Of a stretch of 64,000 bases of DNA, positions 16,757-39,029 are shown piece after piece; position 1 is the stretch's first letter; every line of letters starts with the position of its first letter. The notes beneath the pieces are model-generated. The model did not search any database. It saw only the letters and a list, made by a program, of their open reading frames with translations, and was not told the DNA's origin. The stretch covers positions 1-64,000 of the forward strand of contig NZ_NTFY01000039.1 of NCBI RefSeq assembly GCF_002289565.1, written 5' to 3'. This DNA is from Rhodopirellula sp. SM50. Its GTDB lineage: Bacteria > Planctomycetota > Planctomycetia > Pirellulales > Pirellulaceae. Made by a program: the position numbers and the translations under genes.

Positions 16757-16772
16757 TGGCATGGAAACTGCA
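16757..16772 (+). promoter_or_regulatory. Sigma-54 promoter of the pfpI gene
   Basis: TGGCAT-GGAAA-CTGCA: -24 GG and -12 GC at exact spacing, one departure (C for T) from TGGCAY-N5-TTGC. The transcript should start near 16783, 81 bases before the ATG at 16864. Confidence 0.6.
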
Positions 16773-16863
16773 ATGTAAGTCCCTGCAACTGTACCACCCG
16801 CGACGTTGGTGATGCACCCAATCGTTTCGATACAAACCATGACTTCCCGTTCAGGAGAATTCT

Positions 16864-17430
16864 ATGAGCAAACAATCGCTGAAACAAAAACGAATCGCAT
16901 TTCTCGCCACCGACGGCTTCGAGCAAGTGGAACTGACTAAGCCGTGGGAGGCGATCAAAGACGCTGGCGCCGAGGTCGTGTTGGTGTCGCCGAAGTCCGG
17001 TGAGATCCAGGGCATGAACCATGACGACAAGGCGGACACGTTCAAAGTTGACCAGTCAGTCCAGTCCGCATCCGCCGAACAGTTTGACGGGCTTGTGTTG
17101 CCCGGCGGTGTTGCCAATCCAGACGCGCTGCGGATGTGTGACGATTCCGTCAGCTTCGTGCGAGACTTTTTCAAACAGCACAAGCCGGTTGCCGCCATCT
17201 GCCACGGGCCTTGGACGCTGATCGAGGCCGACGTCGTTCGCGGACGTAAAGTGACGTCGTGGCCGAGTCTGAAGACGGATCTGATCAATGCCGGAGCTGA
17301 GTGGGTCGATGAAGAATGCGTTTGTGATCAGGGATTGGTGACCAGCCGGAACCCCGACGACCTGCCCGCGTTCTGTGACAAGGCGATTGAAGAATTCGCC
17401 GAAGGTCGCCATGCCGAGCAAACGACGTAA
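16864..17430 (+). CDS. PfpI/DJ-1 family protein (YhbO-type)
   Basis: A 188-residue cytoplasmic protein of the type 1 glutamine-amidotransferase-like PfpI/DJ-1 family, whose members act as proteases, chaperones or glyoxal-adduct deglycases in stress. The catalytic set is complete: E20 (DGFEQVEL), nucleophile C113 and H114 in AAICHGPWTLIEAD. Length and motif order match the YhbO/PfpI (TIGR01382) group. The start has a good Shine-Dalgarno AGGAG at 16855. Preceded by a sigma-54-type promoter at 16757 and followed by small stress-type genes on the same strand, probably partly co-transcribed. Confidence 0.93.
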   Translation: MSKQSLKQKRIAFLATDGFEQVELTKPWEAIKDAGAEVVLVSPKSGEIQGMNHDDKADTFKVDQSVQSASAEQFDGLVLPGGVANPDALRMCDDSVSFVRDFFKQHKPVAAICHGPWTLIEADVVRGRKVTSWPSLKTDLINAGAEWVDEECVCDQGLVTSRNPDDLPAFCDKAIEEFAEGRHAEQTT

Positions 17431-17547
17431 ACGCGTTTTGCAACCGCTCTGCAGACACGTCGGGGGTGTCTCGGTCGGCCGATCCGCCGTCGTCGCCGCC
17501 GGCAAGCCGACGATACAGCGACCAAACATTCAACAAGGAATAGGACC

Positions 17548-18030
17548 ATGAACACTCATAAAAAACTGATCGACCTACTCAAGGACTTCGACACAGCAAT
17601 GCTCGTCACCCGCAGCGTCGAGGGTGCAATCAACGCCCGTCCGATGGCGGTCGCTCAAGTGGAACCAGACGGCCAACTCTGGTTTGTGACCGAGCGAAGT
17701 TCGGGCAAAGTCTCCGATGTGGCGCTCGATTCAGAAGTTGCCGTGACCATGCAAGCGTCAAATAAGTTCGTGTCGATCTCCGGGACTGCGCACCCGAGCG
17801 ATGATCAAGCGAAGCTGGACGAACTATGGAGCGAAGGCTGGAAAGTTTGGTTCCCCGACGGCAAGTCCAGTGAGAAGATTTTATTGTTGCGGATCGAACC
17901 GTCACGGGGCGAATACTGGGATCACTCCGGCTTAACCGGCGTGAAGTATTTGCTGAAAGCCGGTACCGCCTATTTGCAAGGCGAACGTCCCGCCACAGAT
18001 GCCGCAACCAACGCTTCTGTTTCGATGTAA
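17548..18030 (+). CDS. Pyridoxamine-oxidase-fold general stress protein
   Basis: 160 residues of the PNPOx-like split-barrel flavin-binding fold, closest in layout to general stress protein 26 (YdaG): LLKDFDTAMLVTRSVEGAINARPM, LWFVTERSSGKVSDV, VAVTMQASNKFVSISG, LRIEPSRGEYWD. Such proteins bind FMN, F420 or haem; the ligand cannot be told from sequence alone. It has its own ribosome site (AGGAATAGGACC at 17536) and lies 117 bases after the PfpI gene with no clear promoter of its own. Confidence 0.9.
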   Translation: MNTHKKLIDLLKDFDTAMLVTRSVEGAINARPMAVAQVEPDGQLWFVTERSSGKVSDVALDSEVAVTMQASNKFVSISGTAHPSDDQAKLDELWSEGWKVWFPDGKSSEKILLLRIEPSRGEYWDHSGLTGVKYLLKAGTAYLQGERPATDAATNASVSM

Positions 18031-18085
18031 ACCCGCGTGCCTTGCTGCCGCGCTTTCCACTCCCCCAAAAAACAACGAGAGAACC

Positions 18086-18727
18086 ATGCGACTCGCTGCC
18101 TCCCTACTAACGATGATGTTCGTAACAATCGCAATCGCCGACGATGGATTGTTCGACGACAATGACAACGCAACCGCGGCGGGTGACGTTCTCGAAGCCC
18201 GGGGCGAACTGGCCACCGGCCTCGGTAAGGGTGCCTATTTGAAATCCTTGTCGGCCGAGCAATTGCAGGAAGCGCTGGCGCTGAGGCTCAAGAATCGCGA
18301 GGAGCGGGTTGAGCAATACTATGAACTGCGTGATCTGCGGGACGAGGAAATCGCGGAGCAGCACACGCCGTTATCAGAGGAGAAGCGTCGTGAAATCGGC
18401 AAACGGATGGCCCCGGATCGATTGAAAGAAAACCAGATCGATCGACAGTCCGGCGAACTCTACTGGCCTCAGCCGCTGGACCATTCCGCCCTGAAACCGT
18501 ACCGCAAACCGATCGAAGAAACGTTTGCGAAACGTTCGAGCCCCGGGGAAACGTATCGGCGAATGGATTATGCAAAAGTCCACCGAATGGTCAACTTGAT
18601 CCACGAAGCGGTGGACTCGATCAAGGATCAACTGGATCCCCAGGAGTTCACCGCATTGAAAAGCTATCTCCGGCAAATCGATTATGAAGCCAGATTCAAC
18701 GGTTCCGACAAGAGGGTTGACTACTGA
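18086..18727 (+). CDS. Secreted charged protein of unknown function
   Basis: 213 residues. The ATG at 18086 gives a signal peptide (RLAASLLTMMFVTIAIADD), so the longer upstream frame is rejected. The mature part is rich in Glu, Arg and Leu, with a long predicted helix (LSAEQLQEALALRLKNREER) and a second helical region near the C-terminus (MVNLIHEAVDSIKDQLDP). I recognise no domain. Its stop overlaps the start of the zinc-ribbon gene by one base, so the two are coupled. Confidence 0.75.
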   Translation: MRLAASLLTMMFVTIAIADDGLFDDNDNATAAGDVLEARGELATGLGKGAYLKSLSAEQLQEALALRLKNREERVEQYYELRDLRDEEIAEQHTPLSEEKRREIGKRMAPDRLKENQIDRQSGELYWPQPLDHSALKPYRKPIEETFAKRSSPGETYRRMDYAKVHRMVNLIHEAVDSIKDQLDPQEFTALKSYLRQIDYEARFNGSDKRVDY

Positions 18728-18927
18728 TGAGCGATGATCGATCCGCTTCACCGTTGAACATGACTCCCTGTCCACAGTGCGGCATTGATGTGCACGACCG
18801 TGCGGTCGCGTGTCCCAACTGTGGCACAAAGATCTATGTGAACTCGCCTGCTGACATCACGCCGACCAGACACCCGCCTGGTTCATCAAGTGACCGCTCT
18901 GTTCAAAACCGACCAGATGGTCAATAG
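18727..18927 (+). CDS. Small zinc-ribbon protein
   Basis: 66 residues with four cysteines spaced as a zinc ribbon: C15-x2-C18 (CPQCGIDV) and C29-x2-C32 (CPNCGTKI). The remainder is a disordered Pro/Ser-rich tail. No catalytic domain is attached. It overlaps the preceding secreted-protein gene by one base (TGATG). The role is unknown. Confidence 0.72.
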   Translation: MSDDRSASPLNMTPCPQCGIDVHDRAVACPNCGTKIYVNSPADITPTRHPPGSSSDRSVQNRPDGQ

Positions 18928-19010: not shown

Positions 19011-19355
19011 ATGATTGAACAGATGCAAGAAAAGTTTAGCGATTTACGCGACACGGCGGCGGACCGCTTTCACGATGAACCGGATGGGCGCAATACCGGG
19101 ATCGGAAAAACGGAGAATCTGCTGGCCTATGCTGCCGCGCTGGGCGCGACATTGGTGGCACGCAACGCGTTGCAGGCCGGGTGGCGCACCACGCTCAATC
19201 GCGAGCCACCGAAGAATCCCACGTCGCCGGACGTCGATTGGAAAGACGCACTGCTATGGGGTGCGGTCTCCGGCGCACTGGTCGGCATCGTGCGAATTGC
19301 TTCGCGGCGTGCTTCCTCAGGAGCTTACAACAGATACCTGTCGCGGGAACGTTGA
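19011..19355 (+). CDS. DUF4235-like small membrane protein
   Basis: 114 residues with two hydrophobic segments (about 36-52 and 80-98). The motif set REPPKNPTSPDVDWKDALLWG, then SGALVGIVRIASRR, matches the DUF4235 family of actinobacterial and other small membrane proteins, often near stress genes. Function is unknown. The start is supported by GAGGAACC at 18999. Confidence 0.78.
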   Translation: MIEQMQEKFSDLRDTAADRFHDEPDGRNTGIGKTENLLAYAAALGATLVARNALQAGWRTTLNREPPKNPTSPDVDWKDALLWGAVSGALVGIVRIASRRASSGAYNRYLSRER

Positions 19356-19440
19356 AGCGCAGAAGCATCAACGGGCCGATGTCTCACGTGCGGGGACGTT
19401 CTCTGCCTGCATCTCACTTCTTCACATAAGGAAATGACGT

Positions 19441-20562
19441 ATGAGCCAATCCATCCCTTCGATTGGTGTCGAAGAAGAATACCAGCTTGTCGATCCCACC
19501 AGCGGACGATTGTTGCCCAATTGCAAACGGGTGATCGAACAGATCGGGAAACAGACGGTGGCGGACATCCAGCACGAACTTCACCTCACTCAGATCGAGA
19601 TGGCGTCGAAGGTCTGCAGCACATTGGACGAGGTGCGTCGAAGTGTCAGCAACGTTCGCGGTGAACTCATCGTCGCCTCGGGCAACACGGGCTCCACCCT
19701 GGTCGCAGCCGGAACCAATCCGTTGCCCGTCCCCGATTCGGACTCATTCACCCCCAAGCGGCGCTATCAAGTGATGAGTCAGCGGTTTCAACAAATCGCC
19801 CGTGACATGCTGATCTTCGGTTGCCACGTCCACGTGTCCATGGAAGATCGATCGATGGGCGTGCAGGTGATGAACCAGTGTCGTCGTTGGTTGCCGATTC
19901 TGCAGGCTCTCTCGGCCAATTCACCGTATTGGGACGGAGAAGACACAGGGTACGCGAGCTATCGACGTGAACTGTGGGCGCAGTGGCCAATGGCCGGCCC
20001 GCCACCGCATTTCGATGACCTCGCCGACTATGAAGCGTGTGTCGGTGACCTGGTGCATGCCGGGGCGATCAAGGATGAAAGTTTTATTTACTGGGACATC
20101 CGCCTGCCAACCAAAGTGCCTACGATTGAGTTTCGCGGTGCCGATGTGATGTTGGCGGTGGAAGAGACCGTCGGCTACGCGGGCCTGATACGAGCCATCG
20201 TGATGCAGGTGATGCAGGACATCCGGTCGAACCGAATCAACCGCCCGATACGATCGAGTGTGCTGTCATACGCGACGTGGCATGCCGCTCGATATGGCAT
20301 CAGCAGGGATCTGGTGGATCCACTGACCTGCGAAAAACTTCCGGCCAGAGAGGCCGTGACTCGATTGCTCGACGAGGTACGTCCGTCATTGGAAACGGCC
20401 GCTGACCTGCAGTGCGTCAACGAGTACGTCCAGCGGCTTTTCGATGCGGGCACCGGAGCTGATCGACAGCGGGCAGCAGTCGGTCCGGACGGTGACGTGA
20501 CGCAGGCAGTCCACTACGCTATCGGCGAAACGGCCCGCAGTGCGGTGGTCAGCGAGTGCTGA
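19441..20562 (+). CDS. YbdK-type carboxylate-amine ligase (GCS2)
   Basis: 373 residues of the glutamate-cysteine ligase 2 family (YbdK). The N-terminal ATP/metal motif SIGVEEEYQLVDP, the central CHVHVSME, and RLPTKVPTIEFRGADVML are all present at the usual places. The family links glutamate to cysteine or another amine, but YbdK-type enzymes have weak GCL activity and their true substrate is uncertain. The ribosome site AAGGA stands 8 bases upstream. Last gene of the plus-strand run that begins with pfpI; convergent with cardiolipin synthase. Confidence 0.92.
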   Translation: MSQSIPSIGVEEEYQLVDPTSGRLLPNCKRVIEQIGKQTVADIQHELHLTQIEMASKVCSTLDEVRRSVSNVRGELIVASGNTGSTLVAAGTNPLPVPDSDSFTPKRRYQVMSQRFQQIARDMLIFGCHVHVSMEDRSMGVQVMNQCRRWLPILQALSANSPYWDGEDTGYASYRRELWAQWPMAGPPPHFDDLADYEACVGDLVHAGAIKDESFIYWDIRLPTKVPTIEFRGADVMLAVEETVGYAGLIRAIVMQVMQDIRSNRINRPIRSSVLSYATWHAARYGISRDLVDPLTCEKLPAREAVTRLLDEVRPSLETAADLQCVNEYVQRLFDAGTGADRQRAAVGPDGDVTQAVHYAIGETARSAVVSEC

Positions 20563-22175: not shown

Positions 22176-22883
22176 TCAACGACTCAGTCCGTCCTCTGTA
22201 ATGGACAGTTCGACGGAGTCTTTGACTTCGACTTTCGAACCTGATCCAGTCAAGCTTAGCGTCGCCGGGAAACAGCGTTTCATAGTAATGATGGAGCGTG
22301 CTGGAAGTTCGACTTCGTCTTCGCTGTCGTTGGAAGTGACGACGAGCGTTTGAAACTGTTGGGTCTGGTTGGTCACTTTGACTTCGATCGCAGATGATTT
22401 CGGCCGCCCGAACAACTGAACGGCGTAATACGTCACGCCATCGGTGGACGCGACCGCAACACCCGTTTCGGTCACGAAGTCGGCCAAAATGTTTTCCCGG
22501 TGTGGCGGCGAGTCGATCCAGCCTTGCACAAACACTTCGGTCAGCGACTCGGCCGTCACCTCACCGGTGTTTGTTCGGTAGGCGATGTTCTCCCGCACCA
22601 CGCAATACTGATAACCGGAGTCTTTGGCACGCTCGGCCGGTGTTCGGCCGTCGGCATGGTGACCATACTTTCCTGACTTTGCCATGAAGGTTGCGAATTT
22701 GGATGCCGTTGCAACCAATTCATCATTCGAGCCGATCGGCGGCAGATCATGTTTTTCCCGATAGTCGTTGGTCTGATCCAAGATCGCCTGTTCCACTGCT
22801 TGAATCATCTTGCTGTCGGGCGTTTCAGCGTTGATCAAAGTGTTCACGGCGACCAGCATGAGGAGGGCTGCAGATACTCGCAT
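22176..22883 (-). CDS. Secreted CAP/SCP domain protein
   Basis: 235 residues from the ATG at 22883, which gives a signal peptide (RVSAALLMLVAVNTLINA). Residues 30-160 form a CAP (CRISP/antigen 5/PR-1) domain: ILDQTNDYREKHDLPPI, the first cavity His in YGHHADG, RENIAYR, and the conserved GWIDSPPHRENILADF. Bacterial CAP proteins are extracellular and may bind lipids or act on the wall. The C-terminal 75 residues form an added beta-rich domain. Third gene of the operon DUF1206-DUF421-CAP. Confidence 0.9.
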   Translation of the reverse strand: MRVSAALLMLVAVNTLINAETPDSKMIQAVEQAILDQTNDYREKHDLPPIGSNDELVATASKFATFMAKSGKYGHHADGRTPAERAKDSGYQYCVVRENIAYRTNTGEVTAESLTEVFVQGWIDSPPHRENILADFVTETGVAVASTDGVTYYAVQLFGRPKSSAIEVKVTNQTQQFQTLVVTSNDSEDEVELPARSIITMKRCFPATLSLTGSGSKVEVKDSVELSITEDGLSR

Positions 22884-22923
22884 TGTAAAAGCTCCAATTA
22901 GGTTTGATGAGCGGGGCAATTGT

Positions 22924-23472
22924 TTAACGACTTTCGAACAACCGTTCTGCTCCGATGACGGAGTCGAAGATTGTGGGTTCCATTTTTGTGTCTTTGCTGG
23001 AGTGCAAGACGGAGACGTCACCAGTGGTCTCAAACACCACCGCTTTGACCTGATCGAAACTCATCGCATTGGCCTCACGGAGCTTTGCGAAGAGATCACT
23101 TTCGGTCATGTTGGTTTGGCGAAGATTGTCGTACAGGATTTCTGATCCTGCCATCAGCAACAACGGCTGATTGTCGATGGTGTTGCTCACCCGGTCTGAG
23201 CGCACCCTCAATGCCGCCAGCAACCACTGGATCCCAAACAAGCAGAGGATTGCAAACATTCCCATCAAGAGAGTCGGCGATGGTCCGGATACGGTCGACC
23301 CGAACATCGATCCGACGGCAATGGTCATTGCGAAATCGGCAGCCGACATTTTTGAAAAACTGCGCAGACCAACGGTTCGTGTGTAGAGCAGAATGCTGGC
23401 GTACAGCACGACCGCTGACAGCGCAATCATCGCCAGGTCTGTCAGTGCGACGGAAATCCATTTTTCAAACAT
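22924..23472 (-). CDS. DUF421/YetF-like membrane protein
   Basis: 182 residues: three N-terminal membrane helices (about 10-30, 38-58, 62-85), then the cytoplasmic alpha/beta DUF421 domain (SNTIDNQPLLLMAGSEIL, NMTESDLFAKLREAN, AVVFETTGDVSVL). Membrane-part signatures LRSFSKMSAADFAMTIAVGS are typical of the YetF family. Function is not established. It starts four bases after the DUF1206 stop and is followed 40 bases later by the CAP gene. Confidence 0.93.
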   Translation of the reverse strand: MFEKWISVALTDLAMIALSAVVLYASILLYTRTVGLRSFSKMSAADFAMTIAVGSMFGSTVSGPSPTLLMGMFAILCLFGIQWLLAALRVRSDRVSNTIDNQPLLLMAGSEILYDNLRQTNMTESDLFAKLREANAMSFDQVKAVVFETTGDVSVLHSSKDTKMEPTIFDSVIGAERLFESR

Positions 23473-23476
23473 CCGA

Positions 23477-24349
23477 TCACCCCACGTTGAACTTGCGGAA
23501 CCAGCCCAACAACATCGAGTGGACCGCGTAGCACATCAATCCAAAACCGGTGATACCGAGAAGGACTTTTCCGTAGGCCTGCGACGCGATCGCAGCCAAT
23601 GCGTCGCTCATGCCGGCGATCTCACCGTCGGATGTCCCCTGGACTGCCGAGATGGTGATGAAGGTGCCGATGATTGCGAATGCGATGCCACGCGTACTGA
23701 GCCCCATTCGGCCAACGTGCAGTGCAATCGTACGAGTCGTTTCGCTCATCGCCGCCAAATCATACTTGGTCATGAACTTGGCCTGATACGCTTTGTAGAC
23801 CAAATAGAAAGCGACTCCGATGATGACGACGCCCGCAATCGCGAGCACGATTCGCCCCCACGTCGAATCCAACAACGAACTGGCAGGCCCACCCTGTGTG
23901 TTTCCCGAACTTGACGTCAGCCCCAATGCCATCGATCCGGCGTACCCTCCAAGTGCAACGTATGCCAGTCCGCTAATCGCGTAACCGATGCGTTTAAAAA
24001 TGCCCTTCAAGTCTCGCCCCTCGCCTTCGGTGTCTTTGGCAGCTTGCACCCATCGCCATGCGGTGTAACCGAGCAACCCGATCGCAACCAAACCAAGCAG
24101 CAACCGGCCAAATGGCTGTTTCCCGATCTCTTGGATCGCTTCTCGAGATCCCGAGATTTCACCCCCTGCACCGATCGCCAACTTGAAGGCCAGGAAACCG
24201 ATGATGAAGTAGACGATCCCCTTGGCGACATACCCAGCGCGTCCTAACGTTTCGATCCACGAGGGGACTTCAGGCATCGAACGGGTTTCAAATCCGTGCC
24301 ACGATGGACGCTCGGATGCACGGGACGTGGAAGCTTGATGGGTCGACAT
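23477..24349 (-). CDS. DUF1206 membrane protein
   Basis: 290 residues from ATG 24349 (MSTHQAS). Six membrane helices are arranged as three repeats of the DUF1206 unit, each with a glycine-rich pair: LGRAGYVAKGIVYFIIG, IGYAISGLAYVALGGYAG, VGRMGLSTRGIAFAIIG. Function is unknown; the family is common in stress islands. The longer frame upstream is rejected because the strong sigma-54 promoter (24432-24446) would start the transcript near 24420, downstream of the longest possible start at 24466. First gene of a three-gene operon. Confidence 0.92.
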   Translation of the reverse strand: MSTHQASTSRASERPSWHGFETRSMPEVPSWIETLGRAGYVAKGIVYFIIGFLAFKLAIGAGGEISGSREAIQEIGKQPFGRLLLGLVAIGLLGYTAWRWVQAAKDTEGEGRDLKGIFKRIGYAISGLAYVALGGYAGSMALGLTSSSGNTQGGPASSLLDSTWGRIVLAIAGVVIIGVAFYLVYKAYQAKFMTKYDLAAMSETTRTIALHVGRMGLSTRGIAFAIIGTFITISAVQGTSDGEIAGMSDALAAIASQAYGKVLLGITGFGLMCYAVHSMLLGWFRKFNVG

Positions 24350-24431: not shown

Positions 24432-24446
24432 GCAAACTGCGTGCCA
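24432..24446 (-). promoter_or_regulatory. Sigma-54 promoter of DUF1206 operon (exact)
   Basis: On the minus strand: TGGCAC-GCAGT-TTGC, an exact fit to the -24/-12 consensus including the G after TGGCAC. Predicted start near 24420, 71 bases before the ATG at 24349. Confidence 0.8.
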
Positions 24447-24479: not shown

Positions 24480-24495
24480 TGGCACAGTGTTTGCT
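24480..24495 (+). promoter_or_regulatory. Sigma-54 promoter of lipoprotein gene (exact)
   Basis: TGGCAC-AGTGT-TTGCT, an exact consensus fit. Predicted start near 24506, 64 bases before the lipoprotein ATG at 24570. It faces away from the minus-strand site at 24432-24446; the -24 boxes are about 35 bases apart. Confidence 0.8.
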
Positions 24496-24569: not shown

Positions 24570-24902
24570 ATGAAGTATGCACTGAGCCTGTTGATGCTGA
24601 CCGCTGGAATGACATTGGTTGGATGCAATGACAGCGTGTACGACGAACAAGCAGATGAAGTCCGTGAAAGCTCTCAGGAATACGCTGAGAGCATTCGCGA
24701 ACAAGCCGACAATGAAGCCGCACAGGTCGAAGACCGCTATGAAGCTGCCAAGCCGGCTTTAGAAGAATCAGCCGATGAGCGAGCTGAGGCGATCGAAGAA
24801 CGCGGCGAAGAAAAAGCGGACGCAATTGAGGAAGCCGGCGAACAACGCGCAGACCAACTGGAAGAGATGGACGATGAGGAAGTCGTCGAAGAAGTCGAAT
24901 AG
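24570..24902 (+). CDS. Small acidic coiled-coil lipoprotein
   Basis: 110 residues. The signal peptide ends in a lipobox with the modified cysteine at C19 (GMTLVGCND), so the mature protein is anchored by lipid. The rest is almost entirely charged helix rich in Glu, Ala, Asp and Arg, with repeated modules ERAEAIEERGEEKADAIEE and GEQRADQLEEM in heptad-like spacing. No known domain. ATG 24570 is chosen for the lipobox; AACGAGGAAAC precedes it. Divergent from the DUF1206 operon and driven by an exact sigma-54 site. Confidence 0.85.
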   Translation: MKYALSLLMLTAGMTLVGCNDSVYDEQADEVRESSQEYAESIREQADNEAAQVEDRYEAAKPALEESADERAEAIEERGEEKADAIEEAGEQRADQLEEMDDEEVVEEVE

Positions 24903-29649: not shown

Positions 29650-30732
29650 ATGCCACGCAATCTTTCATTCTGGCTATTGATCGTTTCGGTCGCTCTCTTC
29701 GGGTTGCTGTTCTTTCATGTCATCAAGCCGTTCATCGTGGCGATCTTCGTGGCCTTGGTGTTGACGGTGTTGTTTGCACCGTTGCACCGCTGGTTGACCG
29801 AACGGCTGGCCGGTCACGCGCGAATCGCGGCCGGCGCGACGACCTTGCTGGTGGTCATCGCGGTGCTGCTGCCCATCTGCGTCACACTTTTGATGGCCGG
29901 TACCCAGGTCATGCAGATCGGAGCCGACGTCGCTGGGCGATTTGAGGCCACATCGTCCAACGGGATCGAGGAGACCGTTGAGATGATTGAGTCAACACAG
30001 ATCGGCGACGCGATCGAAGATCTCAACACCCGGTTGCCAGAAGAGCAGCGGCAACACCTAAGGCGAGCGGTCTTGCGGATTACCGACGGTGTGACGGTGG
30101 AAGTGTACGACAAGACGCGTGGGTTGCTGTCGGACTTTTTCACGTTCGCCGTCAGCCTGGCGATCATGATGCTCGCTCTCTACTATTTCCTCGCCGACCG
30201 CGAGGTGTTCTTGTGTGAACTGCATCGCATGATGCCGTTGAAAAACCAGGAAGAACAACGATTGACCGAGCGGTTTCAGTCGGTCTGTCGCGGCGTCGTG
30301 TTGGGGACCGTGGTGGCCGGCGTGGTGCAAGCGGCTTTATCCGGCGTAGCATTCGCACTCTTGGGGGTACCGAACGTTTGGTTGCTGATCGTGCTGACGA
30401 TGTTCTCTTCGTTCATCCCGTTGCTGGGATCCGCCGCGGTCTGGGGCAGTGTGGCGGCGTGGCTGCTTTTTGATGGGCATTATGCATCCGGGATCGGGCT
30501 GGCGGTTTACGGCGCGGTGATTGTCGCGTCATCAGACAACCTGGTTCGTGCCTACGTGATCGGTAATCAAGCAAGGCTACATCCCTTGGTTGCTTTGGTG
30601 ACCGTGCTGGGGGCGCTGAAGTTGATGGGGTTGTGGGGCATCTTCGTCGGCCCAATGGTCGCCGCGTTCTTTTATGCCCTGCTGAACATCACCCGGGATC
30701 GTGTTGCCAACCAACGACAACTGGCGGCATGA
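29650..30732 (+). CDS. AI-2E family transporter (PerM-like)
   Basis: 360 residues with about eight helices and a central soluble domain. Family signatures are HVIKPFIVAIFVALVLTVLFAPLHRWL near the start, a helical extracytoplasmic region (about 90-160), LALYYFLADRE, and GVPNVWLLIVLTMFSSFIPLLG with LMGLWGIFVGPMVAAF near the end. The family includes the autoinducer-2 exporter TqsA and Na+/H+ antiporters; the substrate here is unknown. The ATG follows a short gap after the upstream small gene. Confidence 0.93.
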   Translation: MPRNLSFWLLIVSVALFGLLFFHVIKPFIVAIFVALVLTVLFAPLHRWLTERLAGHARIAAGATTLLVVIAVLLPICVTLLMAGTQVMQIGADVAGRFEATSSNGIEETVEMIESTQIGDAIEDLNTRLPEEQRQHLRRAVLRITDGVTVEVYDKTRGLLSDFFTFAVSLAIMMLALYYFLADREVFLCELHRMMPLKNQEEQRLTERFQSVCRGVVLGTVVAGVVQAALSGVAFALLGVPNVWLLIVLTMFSSFIPLLGSAAVWGSVAAWLLFDGHYASGIGLAVYGAVIVASSDNLVRAYVIGNQARLHPLVALVTVLGALKLMGLWGIFVGPMVAAFFYALLNITRDRVANQRQLAA

Positions 30733-30746: not shown

Positions 30747-30762
30747 TGGCATGGTGTTTGCA
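30747..30762 (+). promoter_or_regulatory. Sigma-54 promoter of epimerase-VKOR-SPW operon (exact)
   Basis: TGGCAT-GGTGT-TTGCA, exact consensus, in the 72-base gap between the transporter and epimerase genes. Predicted start near 30773, 32 bases before the ATG at 30805. Confidence 0.8.
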
Positions 30763-30804: not shown

Positions 30805-31863
30805 ATGTCTGTACCACGTCCTGCCGTCATTGTCACGGGAAGCTCGGGTCTGCTGGGGCAACCGGTGTGCCGCGCGTTGGCTGATCGCGGCTATGAAGTC
30901 TTCGGATTCGATCGCGTCGGATTGCCTGAGCCGCCGAAAAGCCACGCCAACGTTTATGACGTCGAGTGCGACCTGACCAGCTACGAGAATGTGCGTGGCG
31001 CGGTCGCGGACGTTCGACGACGCACCGATGGCAAGCTCGCCAGCGTCGTTCACCTGGCGGCGTACTATGATTTCTCCGGAGAAGGCAGTGAAGCGTACGA
31101 CGAAGTCACGGTCAATGGAACCGATCGGTTGCTCAACGCGCTGGACGAGTTTGAACTGCAACAATTCATTTTCAGCAGTACGATGCTGGTGCACGAACCG
31201 TGTGAGCCGGGCCAACACATCGCCGAGACAGACCCGCTGTTGGCGAAGTGGCCCTATCCCGAAAGCAAAATCCGAACCGAACGGCTGATTCGTGAGGGTC
31301 ACCCCGGGGTGCGGTCCGTGTTCTTGCGGATCGCCGGGGTCTACACCGATTACGGGCGTCAACCGACAATCGTGCAGCAGATCAAGCGGATTTACGAAAA
31401 GGATTTTCAAAGCTACTTCTTTCCCGGCGATACCGAGACCGGACAATCGGCGGTTCACCTGGACGACGCGGTCGATGCGGTCGTGGCGACCGTTGAGCAG
31501 CGCGATCGGATCGAAGCCAAGACGGCTATCTTGATCGGCGAGCCGGATCCTCCCCCCTACGAAACGCTTCAAGATGAAATTGGGCGTCTGATTCATGGCA
31601 AGGAATGGACGACGCTGTGCGTTCCGAAACCGCTGGCGAAAGTGGGGGCGTCGGTCACCGACACGCTGTCCAATGGCGAAGCGTTCATCAAGCCGTTCAT
31701 GGTCAACATGGCCGATGACCATTACGCACTCGATCTCTCGCGGGCCAAAGAGCTGCTCGACTGGGAACCGAAACGCCGACTGATCGATCGGCTGCCAAAG
31801 ATCATTGACGGGCTGAAACAGGATCCCGATCAGTGGTACCGCAAGAACGGTCTGGAACGATAA
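30805..31863 (+). CDS. NAD-dependent epimerase/dehydratase family protein
   Basis: 352 residues, extended SDR fold. The cofactor motif is [14 protein letters not shown], followed by [14 protein letters not shown], a catalytic Ser region ([11 protein letters not shown]) and the YxxxK motif in [11 protein letters not shown]. The C-terminal substrate domain is about 120 residues long. The substrate is not determined; sugar nucleotides are usual for the fold. First gene of a three-gene operon with a VKOR-like protein (5-base gap) and a small membrane protein, under an exact sigma-54 site. Confidence 0.9.
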
Positions 31864-31868
31864 CACCG

Positions 31869-32501
31869 ATGTCGCACGCAACACTTCCCGTCGACGACTT
31901 GGATCGCAACGTCCCGCCGTACCCACACAACCCCTCGGCGTGGTCACAGCGAATCCCGATTTGCATTCTGGCGTTCGTCGCCGCTGCCATCTCCGCGCAC
32001 CTGTCCCTGTACCAATGGGGGCTAATCGAAACCGCTTGGGATCCCTTCTTTGGCAGTGGCACGGCCGAGGTCTTGAAGTCAAAGACGGCGACGCAGATGT
32101 ATGCCATCATCGGCATTCACGATGCGGCGCTTGGAGTGTTGGCATACCTGGGAGACGCCATCTTGGGTTTCGCCGGATCGACGCGGCGGTGGCAGTACCG
32201 TCCCTGGTTGGTGATCCTGTTCGGGATTGACGTGATTCCGCTGGGCATTGTCAGTGTCGTGCTGGTCTTGATCCAGGCGGCTATTATCGGTTCATGGTGT
32301 TTCTTGTGCTTGGTAACCGCTGCGATCTCGTTGATCCTCGTCTACTGGGCGTGGGATGAAGTCCGGGCGTCCCTGATGTACCTGTGGATTGTTTGGAAAC
32401 AGAACCATGATTGGCGACTACTGTGGGATGCGTTTTGGGGCAATCGCTGCGAAGCGATTGATCACGCGGCGGAAACCTTGTTATCGCGGGAGACTGCGTG
32501 A
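31869..32501 (+). CDS. Vitamin K epoxide reductase (VKOR)-like protein
   Basis: 210 residues with four to five helices. The quinone-reducing active-site pair is C-F-L-C in [15 protein letters not shown], and the first helix plus loop ([19 protein letters not shown]) aligns with the VKOR start. The outer-loop cysteine pair that normally relays electrons from a DsbA-like partner is not visible (WDPFFGSG instead of a Cys-containing loop). Family members oxidise thiol partners and reduce quinone for disulfide formation. The C-terminal ~50 residues are cytoplasmic. The start at 31869 follows the epimerase stop by 5 bases. Confidence 0.88.
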
Positions 32502-32848
32502 TGTGGGGACGCGTCGTTGAGATCATGACCGCAGTCTGGCTGGCGGCAAGCCCGTTTGTCTTTCAGGTGCAAGGCAGCGATTCGTTTGTGCTGATCGATT
32601 CGTTGGTTGCGTTGCTGATTGTGATTCTCTCGGGGTTGTCGTACTGGCATCCGACCCGGCATGCGCACTTGCTGATCCTGGTCGTCGCGACCGGGCTAAC
32701 GTTGTGGGGGCGCTTTGCAGAACTTCCCCCGCCACCGATTCACCAAAATCACATTGTCGTCGGACTCTTTCTACTGATGATCGCCATCATCCCGAATGCC
32801 GCGTCGCGTCCGCCCCTCGCGTGGCGCTCGTCTGCCGGATCGCATTGA
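32501..32848 (+). CDS. SPW-type small membrane protein
   Basis: 115 residues, three to four short helices. Its layout, with W-x(8)-SPFVF near the start (AVWLAASPFVFQV) and a second half opening with a similar helix pair, resembles SPW-repeat proteins, whose function is unknown. The ATG shares a base with the VKOR stop (TGATG); GTG 32498 one codon earlier is an alternative. Last gene of the epimerase-VKOR operon. Four bases separate its stop from the convergent glycosidase-like gene. Confidence 0.75.
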   Translation: MWGRVVEIMTAVWLAASPFVFQVQGSDSFVLIDSLVALLIVILSGLSYWHPTRHAHLLILVVATGLTLWGRFAELPPPPIHQNHIVVGLFLLMIAIIPNAASRPPLAWRSSAGSH

Positions 32849-34845: not shown

Positions 34846-35577
34846 GTGATTAGCAAGTCAACGACATCTGATTTCGCATGGGCTTCTTACGGTGTCCACT
34901 TGCTGACCGCGTCGGGGATCGTCCCGGCAGGGCTGGCGATGGCCGAGATCATTTCCCCTGACTGCGATCCACGAATCGTATTCGTCTACCTGTTGTTGAC
35001 CAATGTGATCGACGCGATCGACGGTCCCTTGGCGAGGCGTTTCGAAGTCAAATCGCGAGCCCCCGCGTTCGACGGGCGGACGATCGATGATTTGCTGGAC
35101 TACCTCACCTTCGCGTTCATTCCGCTGATGTTGATCTGGCGGATGGATTGGCTGCCGCAGGGATGGGGTTGGACGGTGACATTGGCGATGGGCAGCAGCT
35201 TGCTCGGATTTTCGCATCGCCACGCGAAAGACGAGGACGGCGGTTTTTTTCGGGGCTTTCCATCCTACTGGAATATTTTTGCGTTCTACGCGGGCATCCT
35301 GTTCGTTTGGGGCGGCGGTTGGGCGGTGGCCTTGTTGATGTGGACGCTGAGCGTCATGACCGTCAGCCCGCTGCGGTTTATCTATCCCAACCTCGCTCCC
35401 AGGCGATTGCGCAGACTTCTGCTCGGTGGTGCGGCGGGATGGGTCGCGGTGATGGTCTTGATGCTGTACCCGTACCCCCATCCGCCAGGATGGCTGACCC
35501 TGGTTTCCTTGGCCTATCCGCTGTTTTACGTCGCCGCATCGTGGCAACTGGCTTCAAGCCGCGGCAAGACAACGTGA
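34846..35577 (+). CDS. Phosphatidylcholine synthase-like CDP-alcohol phosphatidyltransferase
   Basis: 243 residues with about seven helices. The catalytic motif is of the PcsA type: DAIDGPLARRFEV, then FDGRTIDDLLDYLTF, with the Asp residues spaced as in phosphatidylcholine synthase rather than in PgsA/PssA. Two other PcsA-like landmarks are VHLLTASG near the N-terminus and GFPSYWNIFAF in the middle. PcsA condenses choline with CDP-diacylglycerol in the inner membrane; the alcohol used here is not proven. GTG start with Shine-Dalgarno GAGGAG at 34826. Convergent with the diacylglycerol-kinase gene. Confidence 0.87.
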   Translation: MISKSTTSDFAWASYGVHLLTASGIVPAGLAMAEIISPDCDPRIVFVYLLLTNVIDAIDGPLARRFEVKSRAPAFDGRTIDDLLDYLTFAFIPLMLIWRMDWLPQGWGWTVTLAMGSSLLGFSHRHAKDEDGGFFRGFPSYWNIFAFYAGILFVWGGGWAVALLMWTLSVMTVSPLRFIYPNLAPRRLRRLLLGGAAGWVAVMVLMLYPYPHPPGWLTLVSLAYPLFYVAASWQLASSRGKTT

Positions 35578-35593: not shown

Positions 35594-36565
35594 CTAACCG
35601 AGTTCGGCACGCTCGACATGTGATTGAAACTGCCTGCCGACATACATTTTGATCGGCGCCGGCTCGACACAAAACCGGATCGGTTCCGCGTTCACGATTT
35701 CGCCGTCGAGCGTGAAACGCATCGACGGACTCGATCGCAGCTCCAGACGCTTGGCTTGTCGATGAATCACTTGATCACACTCCCCGAATGTTCCGGTCAG
35801 GTTGCGCGTCACGATCTCGGCCATGTCGGCGACCGTACCATCTTTGATCAACACGATGTCTAGCAATCCATCGGTCGGTGACGCCCAGGGAGCGACTTCG
35901 ATCCGTCCTGCGTTGGTACGGCCGTTGGCGACCAGAATTGCCCAGCTATCAAGTTCCAACTGCTCGCCGTCGATGTCGACTTGAATCCGATAGCTCGTCA
36001 TATCCGCCAAAACGGACACAGCCCCCCGAATGTAGCTCATCGCTCCCCAGCGTTGTTTGATTTCGTCGGTCATCAATTCCGACACTCTGACGCAATTCCC
36101 GCCGGCTGCAACGTTTGCGAAGTACTGCTGAAAGCCATCGGCGTGCACCTGCACGATGTCGATGCCTCGTGGCTCGCTTTCGCGCATGTGCTGGACGGCT
36201 TCGGCGACCTCATCTGAAATCGCAAGCGTCCCTGCAAAGTCGTTGGCCGTTCCCAGTGGGATGATAGACAGACTGGGACGCGACCGGGCATCGACTTCCA
36301 TTAAAGCGTTCACGACGGCGTTGACAGTACCGTCGCCGCCGGCGGCGACGACGGTGCGGCATCGGGAACCGTTGATCGCCTGGGGCAAATCCAACTCGCG
36401 ACGGATTTTTGTCCATCGCGTTGCAAAACAAGACAGTAATTGGCGAAGCTGATCGATCTGAGCCGCTCTCCCCGATCCTTCATTCCAGATCACGTGGTAG
36501 TCTAGCTCCAGCAAAGCCGCCCCAGGCCACTCGTCTTGGAGCAGATGGTTCGTGATGGCTGCCAT
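35594..36565 (-). CDS. Diacylglycerol/lipid kinase (YegS-like)
   Basis: 323 residues of the DAGK-catalytic/YegS-LCB5 family. The nucleotide-binding signature VVAAGGDGTVNAVVNAL and the substrate-side motif IPLGTANDFAGTL are intact, followed by the beta-sandwich domain (EVAPWASPTDGLLDIVLIKDG). It probably phosphorylates diacylglycerol or a related lipid, returning it to the CDP-diacylglycerol pool used by the neighbouring phosphatidyltransferase. It starts seven bases after the stop of a 61-residue reading frame and is probably co-transcribed with it. Confidence 0.93.
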   Translation of the reverse strand: MAAITNHLLQDEWPGAALLELDYHVIWNEGSGRAAQIDQLRQLLSCFATRWTKIRRELDLPQAINGSRCRTVVAAGGDGTVNAVVNALMEVDARSRPSLSIIPLGTANDFAGTLAISDEVAEAVQHMRESEPRGIDIVQVHADGFQQYFANVAAGGNCVRVSELMTDEIKQRWGAMSYIRGAVSVLADMTSYRIQVDIDGEQLELDSWAILVANGRTNAGRIEVAPWASPTDGLLDIVLIKDGTVADMAEIVTRNLTGTFGECDQVIHRQAKRLELRSSPSMRFTLDGEIVNAEPIRFCVEPAPIKMYVGRQFQSHVERAELG

Positions 36566-36572
36566 CCTTGGT

Positions 36573-36758
36573 TCAATCCTTTGAGGAATCCGACGATTGC
36601 TCGGCTCTGGCTGCCTCGATGCTCCGCTTGAGACGTTTGGCGGTTTCCTCGCGATACCTTTCGATCGAGGTATCGTCGTCGTCTCCGATCAGCGGAGGGC
36701 CTGCCACAATCGGGTGCGTGACGCCATGAACGGTCTGAATATTAGTGGTATTGGTCAT
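36573..36758 (-). CDS. 61-residue hypothetical protein
   Basis: A short frame from ATG 36758 (MTNTTNIQTVHGVTHP). It has an acidic turn GDDDDTSIERYREET and a basic helix (AKRLKRSIEAARAE). It shows no known domain, signal peptide or membrane helix. Support comes from position: 42 bases downstream of a predicted sigma-54 start (36800) and seven bases upstream of the lipid-kinase gene on the same strand. It could instead be a leader. Confidence 0.5.
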   Translation of the reverse strand: MTNTTNIQTVHGVTHPIVAGPPLIGDDDDTSIERYREETAKRLKRSIEAARAEQSSDSSKD

Positions 36759-36811: not shown

Positions 36812-36826
36812 GCAGATGCCGTGCCA
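36812..36826 (-). promoter_or_regulatory. Sigma-54 promoter of lipid-kinase unit
   Basis: TGGCAC-GGCAT-CTGC on the minus strand: exact -24, one departure at -12 (C for T). Predicted start near 36800. Confidence 0.6.
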
Positions 36827-36890: not shown

Positions 36891-36905
36891 CGGCATGCGA
36901 CTTGC
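36891..36905 (+). promoter_or_regulatory. Sigma-54 promoter of PAP2 gene
   Basis: CGGCAT-GCGAC-TTGC: one departure (C for the first T). Predicted start near 36917, three bases before ATG 36920. Divergent from the minus-strand site at 36812-36826. Confidence 0.55.
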
Positions 36906-36919
36906 GAATGGAATCGAGC

Positions 36920-37669
36920 ATGAAGACCTTCAGCGATCGCAAATTCCATCGACACCTCGTCCGACTGGTCCGCTTCTTCCGTGACCGTGAACCGATTGTG
37001 CTGCTGGGACTGCTGGTCGTCGTACTGGCGGCATGGGGTTTTATCGAACTGACGGACGAAGTCTTGGAGGGGAGTACCGATTCGATTGACCGTTGGGTGG
37101 TGCTCAGTCTGAGAGATTCCAGCAATGTGTCCGACCCGGTCGGACCGACCTGGATGGAGGAAGCGGGGCGTGATTTGACGGCGCTTGGCGGAATAGCGGT
37201 CATGTTGATCGCCGTTGTGTCAGCCGCCGGGTTCCTGGCGATCAATCGCGCTTATCGGACGATGGTCGTTTTGGTGGTGTCGACGTTAAGCGGTATGGGC
37301 GTGAGCTTGTGGATGAAGTCGCTGTTTGCTCGTCCACGCCCCGACTTTGTCCCCCATCTGTCGCACGTCTACACCAGCAGTTTCCCCAGCGGACATTCAA
37401 TGATGGCGGCACTCGTCTATCTGACACTCGCGGCGCTGATCGCTCCGGTGCTGCGGCACTTTTGGTTGCGGTTCTACGCGCTCGCCGTCGCGGTCACATT
37501 AACGGTGCTGGTCGGAATCAGCCGGGTTTACATGGGTGTTCACTATCCCACCGATGTCTTGGCCGGCTGGGCGGCCGGTTTGGTGTGGGCGCTGGCGTGC
37601 TGGCTGATTGCCCGCGCGATCAAGACAAAGCATGACCGAACAAGGACCGATGCGACCGAACCGCCTTGA
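36920..37669 (+). CDS. PAP2 family phosphatase
   Basis: 249 residues with about six helices. The three phosphatase motifs are complete: KSLFARPRP (motif 1), SSFPSGHSM (motif 2) and SRVYMGVHYPTDVLAG (motif 3), as in PgpB, undecaprenyl-diphosphate phosphatase and phosphatidate phosphatase. It acts on the outer face of the inner membrane, removing phosphate from a lipid phosphate. ATG 36920 is chosen over 36908 because the predicted sigma-54 transcript starts between them. Forms a lipid-turnover set with the neighbouring lipid kinase and phosphatidyltransferase. Confidence 0.93.
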   Translation: MKTFSDRKFHRHLVRLVRFFRDREPIVLLGLLVVVLAAWGFIELTDEVLEGSTDSIDRWVVLSLRDSSNVSDPVGPTWMEEAGRDLTALGGIAVMLIAVVSAAGFLAINRAYRTMVVLVVSTLSGMGVSLWMKSLFARPRPDFVPHLSHVYTSSFPSGHSMMAALVYLTLAALIAPVLRHFWLRFYALAVAVTLTVLVGISRVYMGVHYPTDVLAGWAAGLVWALACWLIARAIKTKHDRTRTDATEPP

Positions 37670-37794
37670 ATGGCGACGGCGGAACGCCAGGTGCGAGAGC
37701 GGCCAGACGCCCGTCGCCGACGCCGCTGCCTTGGCATCGGTGAAGGTCACGATTGCGAAGCGAACGTGTTGTGGAACACTTGGCTGAGCAATGC

Positions 37795-37810
37795 TGGCAT
37801 GGAATTTGCC
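37795..37810 (+). promoter_or_regulatory. Sigma-54 promoter of yihY/brkB-like gene (exact)
   Basis: TGGCAT-GGAAT-TTGCC, exact consensus, in the 205-base gap after the PAP2 gene. Predicted start near 37821, 54 bases before the ATG at 37875. Confidence 0.8.
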
Positions 37811-37874
37811 CCTTTCTCGACACATCCGCCTCACTGAAAACTGAATCCGGGGTCGCTCCACCGGCACCACGACG

Positions 37875-38792
37875 ATGGAATTTCTGAAACAAACCTTCGA
37901 AGAGTTTTTTGACGACCGTTGCACCACCATGGCGGCGGCACTCGCCTACTACACCGCCTTCGCGCTGCCGCCGTTACTGTTTCTGCTGTTGACCGTGCTG
38001 ACGTTCGGGTTGTCGCTTGCGTATGAATCCGAGAACGCCAAGCAGCGGGCACAGGCGGTGTTGGAAGATCAAGCCACAGAAATGCTCGGTAACGAATCGG
38101 CGGCGGAGGGGATCACCACGATCCTGCAAACAAACCGGGCATCCGACGGTACGTGGTGGAAGTCCTTGATCAGCTTTGCGGGGATCATCGTCGGGGCAAC
38201 CGGAGTCGTCGGAGCGTTGCAAGATTCACTCAATCGAGTCTGGCAGGTGAAACCCGACCCGGACACCTCCAGCATCCTGACGATTTTGATCAAACGAATT
38301 ATATCGTTGGCAATGATCCTGGCGCTCGGCTTTCTGCTGCTGGTTTCCATTGTCGTTTCCTCAGTGCTCTCCAACGCGGGAGAACAACTGGGTTCGATCC
38401 TGGGGATGGACGTGGGAGTCGCTGCAATCATCAACTACCTGGTTCAGGCCGCGGTGGTCTTTATCGTGTTTGCGGCAATCTTCAAGTTCATGCCCGACGC
38501 GGTCGTGCAGTGGCGCAATGTGATTGCCGGTGCAGCGATCACGACGGTGCTGTTTCTGGTGGGCCGATACGCGATGCAATTCTATTTTTCTTACAGTGAA
38601 CCGGGAGCCGAATTGGGCGCGGCGGCGGCATCGCTGGCGGTCATATTGGTCTGGGTTTATTACTCGTCGATGATCGTGCTGTTGGGCGCCGAGGCCACTC
38701 AGGTGTATGCCGTCCGCTATGGGAACGGTATTCGGCCGGAGAGCAACGCAGTCCGCGTGGTCGAAGAGATCCGGCGACCGGAGCGGGTTTAG
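37875..38792 (+). CDS. YihY/BrkB family membrane protein
   Basis: 305 residues with six helices. Family landmarks are FFDDRCTTMAAALAYYTAFALPPLL at the first helix, GIIVGATGVVGALQDSLNRVWQV in the middle loop, RNVIAGAAITTVLFLVGRYAMQFY, and VYYSSMIVLLGAEATQVYA near the end. YihY/virulence-factor BrkB proteins are of debated function (once annotated RNase BN; possibly lipid transport). Its own exact sigma-54 site lies upstream. Confidence 0.93.
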   Translation: MEFLKQTFEEFFDDRCTTMAAALAYYTAFALPPLLFLLLTVLTFGLSLAYESENAKQRAQAVLEDQATEMLGNESAAEGITTILQTNRASDGTWWKSLISFAGIIVGATGVVGALQDSLNRVWQVKPDPDTSSILTILIKRIISLAMILALGFLLLVSIVVSSVLSNAGEQLGSILGMDVGVAAIINYLVQAAVVFIVFAAIFKFMPDAVVQWRNVIAGAAITTVLFLVGRYAMQFYFSYSEPGAELGAAAASLAVILVWVYYSSMIVLLGAEATQVYAVRYGNGIRPESNAVRVVEEIRRPERV

Positions 38793-38926
38793 CGTCCGTT
38801 CGAAAATGAAATCGAGGCAGTCCCCACGCGTTCCAGAACGTGGACGCAGTAGCGTCTGCCGGCGACCGGGGGTGCGAGGCAACGATTTGGTGAGATCAAC
38901 GATCGGCTGATTGCTTGAGCGTTTTT

Positions 38927-38942
38927 TGGCGCGCCCCTTGCA
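38927..38942 (+). promoter_or_regulatory. Sigma-54 promoter upstream of 39030 gene
   Basis: TGGCGC-GCCCC-TTGCA: one departure (G for A in the -24 box). Predicted start near 38953, 77 bases before ATG 39030; this excludes the upstream TTG at 38943 as a start. Confidence 0.55.
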
Positions 38943-39029
38943 TTGCTTCCTGACGACAGCGTCACTCGGGCGCGGGGCGGACGTTACGACGAACGCCGAT
39001 TCAGCGACTCCATTGAAAGGCAGAGTACC

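What the first reader, a model, noticed from the sequence alone, without database searches (positions are those of the whole stretch)
16757..38953. A sigma-54 regulon covering a stress/envelope gene block
Seen directly: six exact matches to TGGCA(C/T)-N5-TTGC, each in a gap and pointing at the next gene: 24480(+), 24446(-), 28848(-), 28962(+), 30747(+), 37795(+). One-departure matches, also correctly oriented, lie at 16757, 26141, 36891 and 38927 (+) and at 26037 and 36826 (-). By my estimate an exact match is expected about 0.2 times in 64 kb on both strands, and far less often in correctly oriented gaps. The genes served are DJ-1/PfpI, a lipoprotein, DUF1206-DUF421-CAP, baeRF, a cation exchanger, an AI-2E-type transporter, epimerase-VKOR-SPW, a lipid kinase, PAP2, BrkB and a secreted Asp-rich protein. 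I infer that a single sigma-54 activator switches this block on as a unit, a system I do not know as described.
Basis: partly seen in the sequence, partly recalled or inferred. Interest (0 to 1): 0.9.

Follow-up and report, generated by a model that had tools for sequence, protein, structure and literature searches.

The report
Planctomycete sigma-54 stress gene island
A 25-kilobase cluster of stress and cell-envelope genes in a planctomycete bacterium is studded with about fifteen conserved switches of the sigma-54 type, and comparison with relatives points to one activator protein, encoded elsewhere in the genome, that probably turns them on together.

Summary
Nine of 200,000 simulations placed six of the genome's 110 exact sites as close together. 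I add three sites: 14271(+), 16362(-), 34638(+). The cluster runs from 14.2 to 38.9 kb; the same matrix finds nothing at score 13 in the flanks. All 15 sites recur in a syntenic relative, several as conserved patches in diverged gaps, so they are almost certainly working -24/-12 promoters.
The single-activator idea is partly supported. No sigma-54 activator lies in the window. The best candidate is a REC-AAA+-Fis protein elsewhere in the genome (C137:48586-50109). Its orthologues sit among block genes or CheB-CheR hybrid kinases in three other genomes. BrkB genes carry the promoter more often in genomes that have this protein (13 of 22 genes) than in those without (1 of 13). No shared enhancer motif was found. 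GroES has a sigma-54 site even where the candidate is absent, so other activators must exist.
Sigma-54 control of planctomycete stress genes has been predicted before, by gene category. The island and its proposed activator-kinase module look new in the searches I made.

The parts
14271..14285 (+). -24/-12 site GGGCACGATCTTTGC before orf499 (no Pfam match)
   Evidence: G012 has GGGCACGGTCTTTGC
15772..16284 (-). single-receiver response regulator RR3
   Evidence: Pfam Response_reg; relatives beside CheB-CheR-like kinases in G013, G007, G019
16348..16362 (-). -24/-12 site GGGCACGATAATTGC before RR3
   Evidence: G012 GGGCACGAGAGTTGC, G001 GGGCACAATCATTGC
16757..16771 (+). -24/-12 site TGGCATGGAAACTGC before DJ-1/PfpI
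   Evidence: conserved in G012 and G001
16864..18727 (+). DJ-1/PfpI, PNPOx-like stress protein, orf242 (no Pfam match)
   Evidence: Pfam
19011..20562 (+). DUF4235 and GCS2-type ligase (no site of their own found here)
   Evidence: Pfam
22176..24349 (-). DUF1206, DUF421, CAP operon
   Evidence: Pfam; start
24432..24446 (-). exact site TGGCACGCAGTTTGC before DUF1206
   Evidence: a site scoring 14 or more before DUF1206 in 10 of 12 relatives
24480..24494 (+). exact site TGGCACAGTGTTTGC before small lipoprotein
24570..24902 (+). small lipoprotein-like protein, 110 aa
25225..25974 (-). DUF998 membrane protein (start uncertain)
   Evidence: Pfam
26023..26037 (-). near site TGGCACGCAACATGC before DUF998
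   Evidence: G012 TGGCACGCGACATGC
26141..26155 (+). near site CGGCATCGCGTTTGC before baeRF
   Evidence: identical in G012 and G001 within diverged gaps
26201..27316 (+). baeRF family protein
   Evidence: Pfam
27762..28820 (-). Na/Ca-type exchanger; start codon 13 nt after the GC of its site
28834..28848 (-). exact site TGGCATGTTCGTTGC before exchanger
28962..28976 (+). exact site TGGCATATCGATTGC before orf154 and AI-2E transporter
29126..30732 (+). orf154 (no Pfam match; start uncertain) and AI-2E family transporter
30747..30761 (+). exact site TGGCATGGTGTTTGC before epimerase-VKOR-SPW
30805..32848 (+). epimerase, VKOR, SPW operon
   Evidence: Pfam
   Evidence: TGGCATGGGAACTGC in G012, TGGTATGGAAACTGC in G003
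34900..35577 (+). CDP-alcohol phosphatidyltransferase
   Evidence: Pfam
35594..36758 (-). orf107 (no Pfam match) and DAGK/YegS lipid kinase
   Evidence: Pfam
36812..36826 (-). near site TGGCACGGCATCTGC before orf107-lipid kinase
36891..36905 (+). near site CGGCATGCGACTTGC before PAP2; ATG 14 nt after its GC
36920..37669 (+). PAP2 phosphatase (start chosen because this ATG, not the one at 36908, is kept in G012 and G001)
   Evidence: Pfam
37795..37809 (+). exact site TGGCATGGAATTTGC before BrkB
37875..38792 (+). BrkB family membrane protein
   Evidence: Pfam
38927..38941 (+). near site TGGCGCGCCCCTTGC before secreted Asp-rich protein
39030..40172 (+). secreted Asp-rich protein (no Pfam match)
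42028..47256 (-). CheB-CheR-PAS-histidine kinase-receiver hybrid, proposed sensor
   Evidence: Pfam; a relative lies one gene from the candidate activator in G019

Best explanation
The block is a sigma-54 stress island. About 15 separate -24/-12 promoters each drive one gene or short operon for envelope, ion, lipid, redox and general-stress functions, and RNA polymerase with the single RpoN waits at them (promoters shown by sequence and conservation; occupancy inferred). The proposed trigger is a phosphorelay. PAS-rich hybrid kinases of the CheB-CheR type (42028-47256, and the related PAS hybrid kinase beside the activator on C137), helped by single receivers such as RR3, phosphorylate a REC-AAA+-Fis activator encoded at C137:48586-50109. 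Its GAFTGA loop then opens the promoters together (inferred from gene neighbourhoods, co-occurrence and promoter presence). Two promoters point at RR3 and at the neighbouring orf499, so feedback on the receiver is likely (inferred).
For: Promoters: number, clustering, reversed-matrix control; 15 of 15 recur in G012. In the syntenic block of G001, eight orthologous sites score 13 or more (BrkB, orf107, epimerase, orf154, exchanger, baeRF, DJ-1, RR3), the other side of the baeRF gap has one before CAP, and a weaker one stands before PAP2. In eleven other relatives, 19 of 37 orthologous upstream regions score 12 or more against 0 of 37 with the reversed matrix and 6 of 37 on the opposite strand. 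A related 80-kb island in G007 has 26 sites, 23 in gaps and well oriented, against 2 (1 well placed) for the reversed matrix. Machinery: one rpoN match; candidate = REC + Sigma54_activat + HTH_8, with GAFTGA. Activator link: in G007 one orthologue (78%) lies in the 80-kb island and a second (81%) about 63 kb further on, among DUF4235 and CheB-CheR-like genes; in G026 the orthologue (80%) sits between CAP and DUF1269-orf242-PNPOx-DJ-1, with three CheB-CheR-like kinases next; in G019 (72%) it is separated by an RR3-like gene from a CheB-CheR kinase. All 12 relatives with DUF1206 are among the 14 of 59 relatives with the orthologue at 70% identity or more. BrkB genes with a site scoring 12 or more within 360 bp: 13 of 22 with the orthologue, 1 of 13 without, Fisher P = 0.004; score 13 or more within about 1.45 kb: 16 of 22 against 1 of 13, P = 0.0003.
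Against: No enhancer motif common to 57 island promoters beats control gaps. The candidate is not in the block or on its contig in this genome. The with/without comparison is confounded by phylogeny. G032 has a BrkB site without the orthologue; G010 has the orthologue but no site before DUF1206, and G026 only a weak one (9.8); G003 and G019 have the orthologue but no DUF1206. In seven further genomes the surroundings of the orthologue show few or no block genes. GroES carries a site in genomes with (13 of 14) and without (6 of 14) the orthologue, so at least one other activator works at stress promoters. Other activators also lie near islands: a GAF-AAA-Fis type 8 kb (G013) and 39 kb (G002) from DUF1206, and the L031 group lies 26-35 kb from the candidate in G012, G013, G002 and G001. 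No expression data exist here.
Confidence: 0.66

Rival explanations
1. The sites are real sigma-54 promoters, but several different activators each control some of them; the block is a gathering of stress genes, not one switch.
For: About 22 strong activator-domain matches in the genome; no shared enhancer motif; GroES sites occur without the candidate; a GAF-type activator lies near the islands of G013 and G002.
Against: One orthologous group recurs among the block's genes in G007 and G026 and beside RR3 and CheB-CheR relatives in G019, and BrkB promoter presence follows it.
Confidence: 0.27
2. The activator is one of the other paralogues (L031, L034, L041 or the GAF type L032) rather than the C137 protein.
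For: L041 is paired with a PAS histidine kinase behind an exact sigma-54 site in the home genome and its orthologue lies about 20 kb from DUF1206 in G010; L032 orthologues lie 8 and 39 kb from DUF1206 in G013 and G002; L031 lies 26-35 kb from the candidate in four relatives.
Against: No block genes were found around L031, L034 and L041 in the home genome. Their surroundings in other genomes were not examined systematically, so this is a weak argument.
Confidence: 0.15
3. Chance or another motif: a G+C-rich genome throws up TGGCA-TTGC strings, or they bind an ordinary repressor.
For: 110 exact matches genome-wide, 50 for the reversed pattern, 31 of 96 classified sites inside genes.
Against: Clustering, no reversed-matrix hits in the block, -24 and -12 boxes kept while the spacer changes, sensible distance to start codons.
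Confidence: 0.02

Closest known systems
Predicted sigma-54 regulons of Planctomycetia (Carrera-Reyna et al. 2025, PMC12316311; passages read)
   Same: Stress categories: UspA, MscS, chaperones, proteases, ZraR-type regulators. In this genome exact sites outside the window precede Usp, MscS+BON, GroEL, GroES, HSP20, CsbD and BON genes.
   Different: Given by COG class; the passages I read describe no multi-promoter island, no DUF1206/BrkB/baeRF set and no assigned activator. Its data files were not read.
[quoted passage not shown]
   Same: Related planctomycete; PNPOx-type stress gene; sigma-54 suggested for a stress gene.
   Different: One suggested promoter at another locus; rpoN itself was not seen to respond to heat and fell under salt in that study.
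ZraSR and NtrBC type two-component sigma-54 systems (recalled)
   Same: REC-AAA+-Fis activator, histidine kinase, -24/-12 promoters.
   Different: Many more promoters in one block, CheB-CheR-PAS hybrid kinases and separate receivers.
General stress responses run by sigma-B, RpoS or PhyR-EcfG (recalled)
   Same: Similar target classes: DJ-1, PNPOx, CsbD, Usp.
   Different: Those use sigma-70 family factors; the SigBFG model finds 27 matches but none above its cut-off in this genome. RpoS and PhyR-EcfG were not searched.

Membership tests
sigma-54 (-24/-12) promoters | GG-N10-GC with TGGCAY and TTGC boxes, in gaps, pointing at the next gene | tested here: met
   (6 exact; 9 with one or more departures from the consensus)
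sigma-54 (-24/-12) promoters | Conserved as footprints in relatives | tested here: met
sigma-54 (-24/-12) promoters | rpoN and enhancer-binding proteins in the genome | tested here: met
sigma-54 (-24/-12) promoters | Transcript start about 12 nt after GC; dependence on rpoN | not testable with these tools
   needs 5'-end mapping and a mutant
single-activator regulon | Shared upstream enhancer motif | tested here: inconclusive
   none above controls in 57 promoters; Fis-type sites can be degenerate (recalled)
single-activator regulon | Activator linked to the block by neighbourhood and co-occurrence | tested here: met
   neighbourhood in three genomes, not in seven others looked at; not corrected for phylogeny
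single-activator regulon | Activator encoded in the block itself in this genome | tested here: not met
   no PF00158 match on contig C80
NtrC-family enhancer-binding protein (candidate) | Receiver, sigma-54 AAA+ domain with GAFTGA, Fis-type HTH | tested here: met
sigma-B type general stress response | SigB/F/G sigma factor | tested here: not met
   27 matches, none above the curated cut-off (the cut-off was passed in 1 of 14 control genomes)

The most novel reading that the evidence does not exclude
A Rhodopirellula-like group of planctomycetes runs a general stress response through sigma-54: CheB-CheR-PAS hybrid kinases and free receivers feed one NtrC-type activator that fires dozens of promoters gathered in islands, doing with an ATP-driven, all-or-none sigma what other bacteria do with sigma-B, RpoS or EcfG.
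Probability: 0.4. Interest if true: 0.8.

Novelty: new variant of a known kind. Interest (0 to 1): 0.62.

Why it matters
How planctomycetes sense and answer general stress is, to my knowledge, poorly known. The finding gives a definite candidate activator, a kinase family and a list of about 15 promoters that can be tested directly. It would also be an unusual case of sigma-54, often used for single-signal systems (recalled), serving a broad stress programme arranged as an island that is reshuffled between species while its promoters are kept.

Tried and rejected
Enhancer motif: k-mer and dyad counts and EM motif searches on 30 and 57 promoters gave nothing clearly above controls; the best non-palindromic motif (2.02 per sequence against 1.63-1.80 in three controls) reads like the divergent promoter itself. 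The GCTTCGCA enrichment is at least partly a palindromic repeat (see noticed items). A first activator comparison read loci on the wrong strand and missed the candidate's orthology; one search corrects it. I considered L031, L034 and L041 and ranked them lower for lack of block genes around them in the home genome. GroES was tried as a second with/without comparison and turned out to have sites in both groups, which argues against one activator for all stress genes. Rows dropped: of 26 BrkB rows listed for genomes with the activator 22 were counted (two start too far into the profile, two are fragments below the cut-off), and of 17 rows listed without it 13 were counted (from 12 of the 22 genomes searched). 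In one search, 30 of 47 and 30 of 61 GroES matches had loci, and 29 and 24 of these had full flanks; sites scoring 13 or more were 15 of 29 and 6 of 24 (reversed matrix 1 of 29 and 0 of 24). Two sites left out for cut flanks (G008, G022) scored 18.5 and 13.8. Pfam was run on 28 of the 38 genes behind well-placed exact sites outside the window.


Full report
Observation. The six exact TGGCAY-N5-TTGC matches are at the stated places and strands, and all six named near matches are present. Shuffles give 0.26 exact matches on average and none of 100 reaches six. The home genome (9.80 Mb, 146 contigs) has 110 exact matches against 50 for the reversed pattern. Six of the 110 lie within 13.4 kb; 9 of 200,000 random placements do this anywhere in the genome. 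Of 96 distinct sites that I could classify in fetched stretches, 44 are in a gap and point at the next gene, among them all six of the window; 31 lie inside called genes.

More sites, and a boundary. With a weight matrix for -24/-12 elements typed from recall, the segment 14-39 kb has 14 hits at score 13, against none in 1-13 kb, 39-64 kb and the remainder of the contig, and none with the reversed matrix. One of the 14 lies inside the baeRF gene and is left out. With 36891 (12.7) and 34638 (12.4), kept because they recur in relatives, there are 15. Of the other nine one-mismatch matches eight lie inside genes and one, 10901(-), in a gap before a sigma-70 family gene; it is not counted.

Conservation. 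Relative G012 has the whole block in the same order, and all 15 sites recur there. The block is also syntenic in G001 and, where covered, in G003. In G001 eight orthologous sites score 13 or more; DUF998 is replaced by CAP, with a site; the Asp-rich gene is missing from its place. In G003 the sites before the Asp-rich gene, BrkB, lipid kinase and CDP-alcohol gene are present, while PAP2 was called only as a fragment and its site is not seen. In several alignments the sites are the longest unbroken conserved stretch of a gap whose flanks have diverged, for example GGCATTCGGCATCGCGTTTGCA before baeRF. At RR3 and orf499 the spacer changed while both boxes stayed. In eleven further relatives, many with the genes in other places, 19 of 37 orthologous upstream regions hold a site scoring 12 or more (0 of 37 with the reversed matrix, 6 of 37 on the opposite strand), and DUF1206 keeps a site scoring 14 or more in 10 of 12 relatives, G010 (none) and G026 (9.8) being the exceptions.

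Islands. A related 80-kb region in G007 holds orthologues of many block genes and 26 sites, 23 of them in gaps and well oriented, against 2 for the reversed matrix. G013 and G002 islands have 2.5 sites per 10 kb and G026 2.0; 40-60 kb regions around DUF1206 in G001, G004, G005, G006, G009, G010 and G024 have 0.3 to 1.0, close to the reversed matrix there.

Activator. The genome has one rpoN match and 27 Sigma54_activat matches, about 22 of them strong, none on the window's contig. The activator inside the G007 island is 77% identical over 504 residues to one home-genome protein, C137:48586-50109. It has a receiver, the sigma-54 AAA+ domain with GAFTGA, and a Fis-type HTH. In the home genome it follows a PAS hybrid kinase that is 49.5% identical over 420 residues to the block's CheB-CheR hybrid, with a near-consensus site between them that recurs in G012, G013, G002, G001 and G003. 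In G026 the orthologue lies between CAP and DUF1269-orf242-PNPOx-DJ-1, with three CheB-CheR-like genes next; in G019 it is separated by an RR3-like gene from a CheB-CheR kinase; G007 has a second copy about 63 kb from the first, among DUF4235 and CheB-CheR-like genes. In G004, G005, G006, G009, G010, G024 and Rhodopirellula solitaria, by contrast, the 20-60 kb read around the orthologue shows few or no block genes (GH32-type genes, CheB-CheR-like kinases, and one BrkB in G024); 2 to 5 sites stand in each of these stretches, with 4 for the reversed matrix in that of G024 and 0 or 1 in the others. Orthologues at 70% identity or more are in 14 of 59 relatives, and all 12 relatives with DUF1206 are among them; the chance figure printed (6.5e-11) used 60 genomes and ignores phylogeny, so it is only an order of magnitude.

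With and without. BrkB genes were compared between 14 genomes with the orthologue and 22 of the same family without (12 of which gave a usable gene). A site scoring 12 or more within 360 bp was found for 13 of 22 genes with and 1 of 13 without (Fisher P 0.004); with the wider reach 16 of 22 and 1 of 13 (P 0.0003). As a contrast, GroES has a site in 13 of 14 genomes with the orthologue and 6 of 14 without, counting full-flank loci. So sigma-54 control of a chaperonin gene is spread through the family and does not need this activator, while control of the envelope/stress set follows it. Phylogeny confounds both comparisons.

Wider regulon. Pfam was run on 28 of the 38 genes behind well-placed exact sites outside the window. 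Nine are plainly stress, protein-quality or envelope genes: GroEL, GroES, HSP20, a universal stress protein, CsbD, BON, MscS with BON, an FtsH-like protein and a second BrkB. Others include sucrose-phosphate synthase- and phosphatase-like proteins, a branching-type amylase, ExoD, hemerythrin, P-II, FliK, CBS and cytochrome proteins, and several without a match. So it is a mixed set with a strong stress part and some classic sigma-54 targets.

Against. No enhancer motif was found. Exceptions are G010 (activator, no DUF1206 site), G003 and G019 (activator, no DUF1206) and G032 (a BrkB site, no activator). Other activators lie near islands or near the candidate. Nothing here measures transcription.

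Known work. Carrera-Reyna et al. 2025 (PMC12316311; passages only) predict sigma-54 enrichment of UspA, MscS, chaperone, protease and ZraR-type genes in Planctomycetia and cite earlier work on the sigma-54 regulon of Pirellula sp. strain 1. A find for BrkB and COG1295 in its main text gave no occurrence; its promoter tables were not read and may list some of these promoters. PMC2754498 (2009; section 12 and passages) reports the R. baltica common stress response and one proposed sigma-54 promoter. A search for DUF1206 gave one paper, on transport proteins of Myxococcus and Streptomyces (listing only). Searches for sigma-54 with planctomycetes, RpoN with Rhodopirellula, enhancer-binding proteins with Pirellula, sigma54-stress-BrkB-regulon, and planctomycete general stress response showed no description of this island in the rows listed; one search listed 10 of 732 papers and one search listed 12 of 20. 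The library is open-access only.

Organism. An 80% orthologue of the activator lies in Rhodopirellula solitaria, so the home organism is probably a Rhodopirellula-like member of the Pirellulaceae (inference).

Verdict. The promoters are real with high confidence (about 0.95). The block is under sigma-54 as a set. One activator of the C137 group is the best explanation but unproven (about 0.6).

Noticed in passing
28820 (-) and 36920 (+): The exchanger and PAP2 start codons follow the GC of their sites by 13 and 14 nt, both preceded by ATCGAGC, so the transcripts would be nearly leaderless; the arrangement is kept in G012 and G001.
   Followed up: partly
16284-16757 and 14127-14144: Palindromic repeat-like sequences: one in the RR3/DJ-1 gap, absent from G012 and G001, and a related one before orf499, sharing a GCGAAGCNCC core.
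   Followed up: partly
8354-12075: A CarH/LitR-like HTH plus B12-binding regulator beside a sigma-70 family gene and a DUF1731 epimerase, which looks like a light- or oxidation-responsive set (likeness recalled). A one-mismatch sigma-54 match, 10901(-), stands before the sigma-70 gene.
   Followed up: partly
4528-6231 (+): A 567-aa protein with a stretch that matches the SigB/F/G sigma model below its cut-off.
   Followed up: no
47570-55849 (+): A 2759-aa alpha-2-macroglobulin-type protein with TPRs beside the CheB-CheR kinase; the pair is also neighbours in G001 and G003.
   Followed up: no
home genome, places: Two sequences holding exact matches recur: TGGCACAATGCTTGC (8 in the cut listing, often with the same flanks GGGC...CGGTGG) and TGGCATTGGGCTTGC (10 in the listing).
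   Followed up: no
home genome C108:101392-126900: Kinase genes 62% identical to the block's hybrid in the kinase part, near three exact sites and a CsbD gene, perhaps a further island.
   Followed up: no
home genome C132:33173-39340: A second BrkB and two small genes with weak apolipoprotein-like matches (like the window gene at 24570), each behind an exact site.
   Followed up: no
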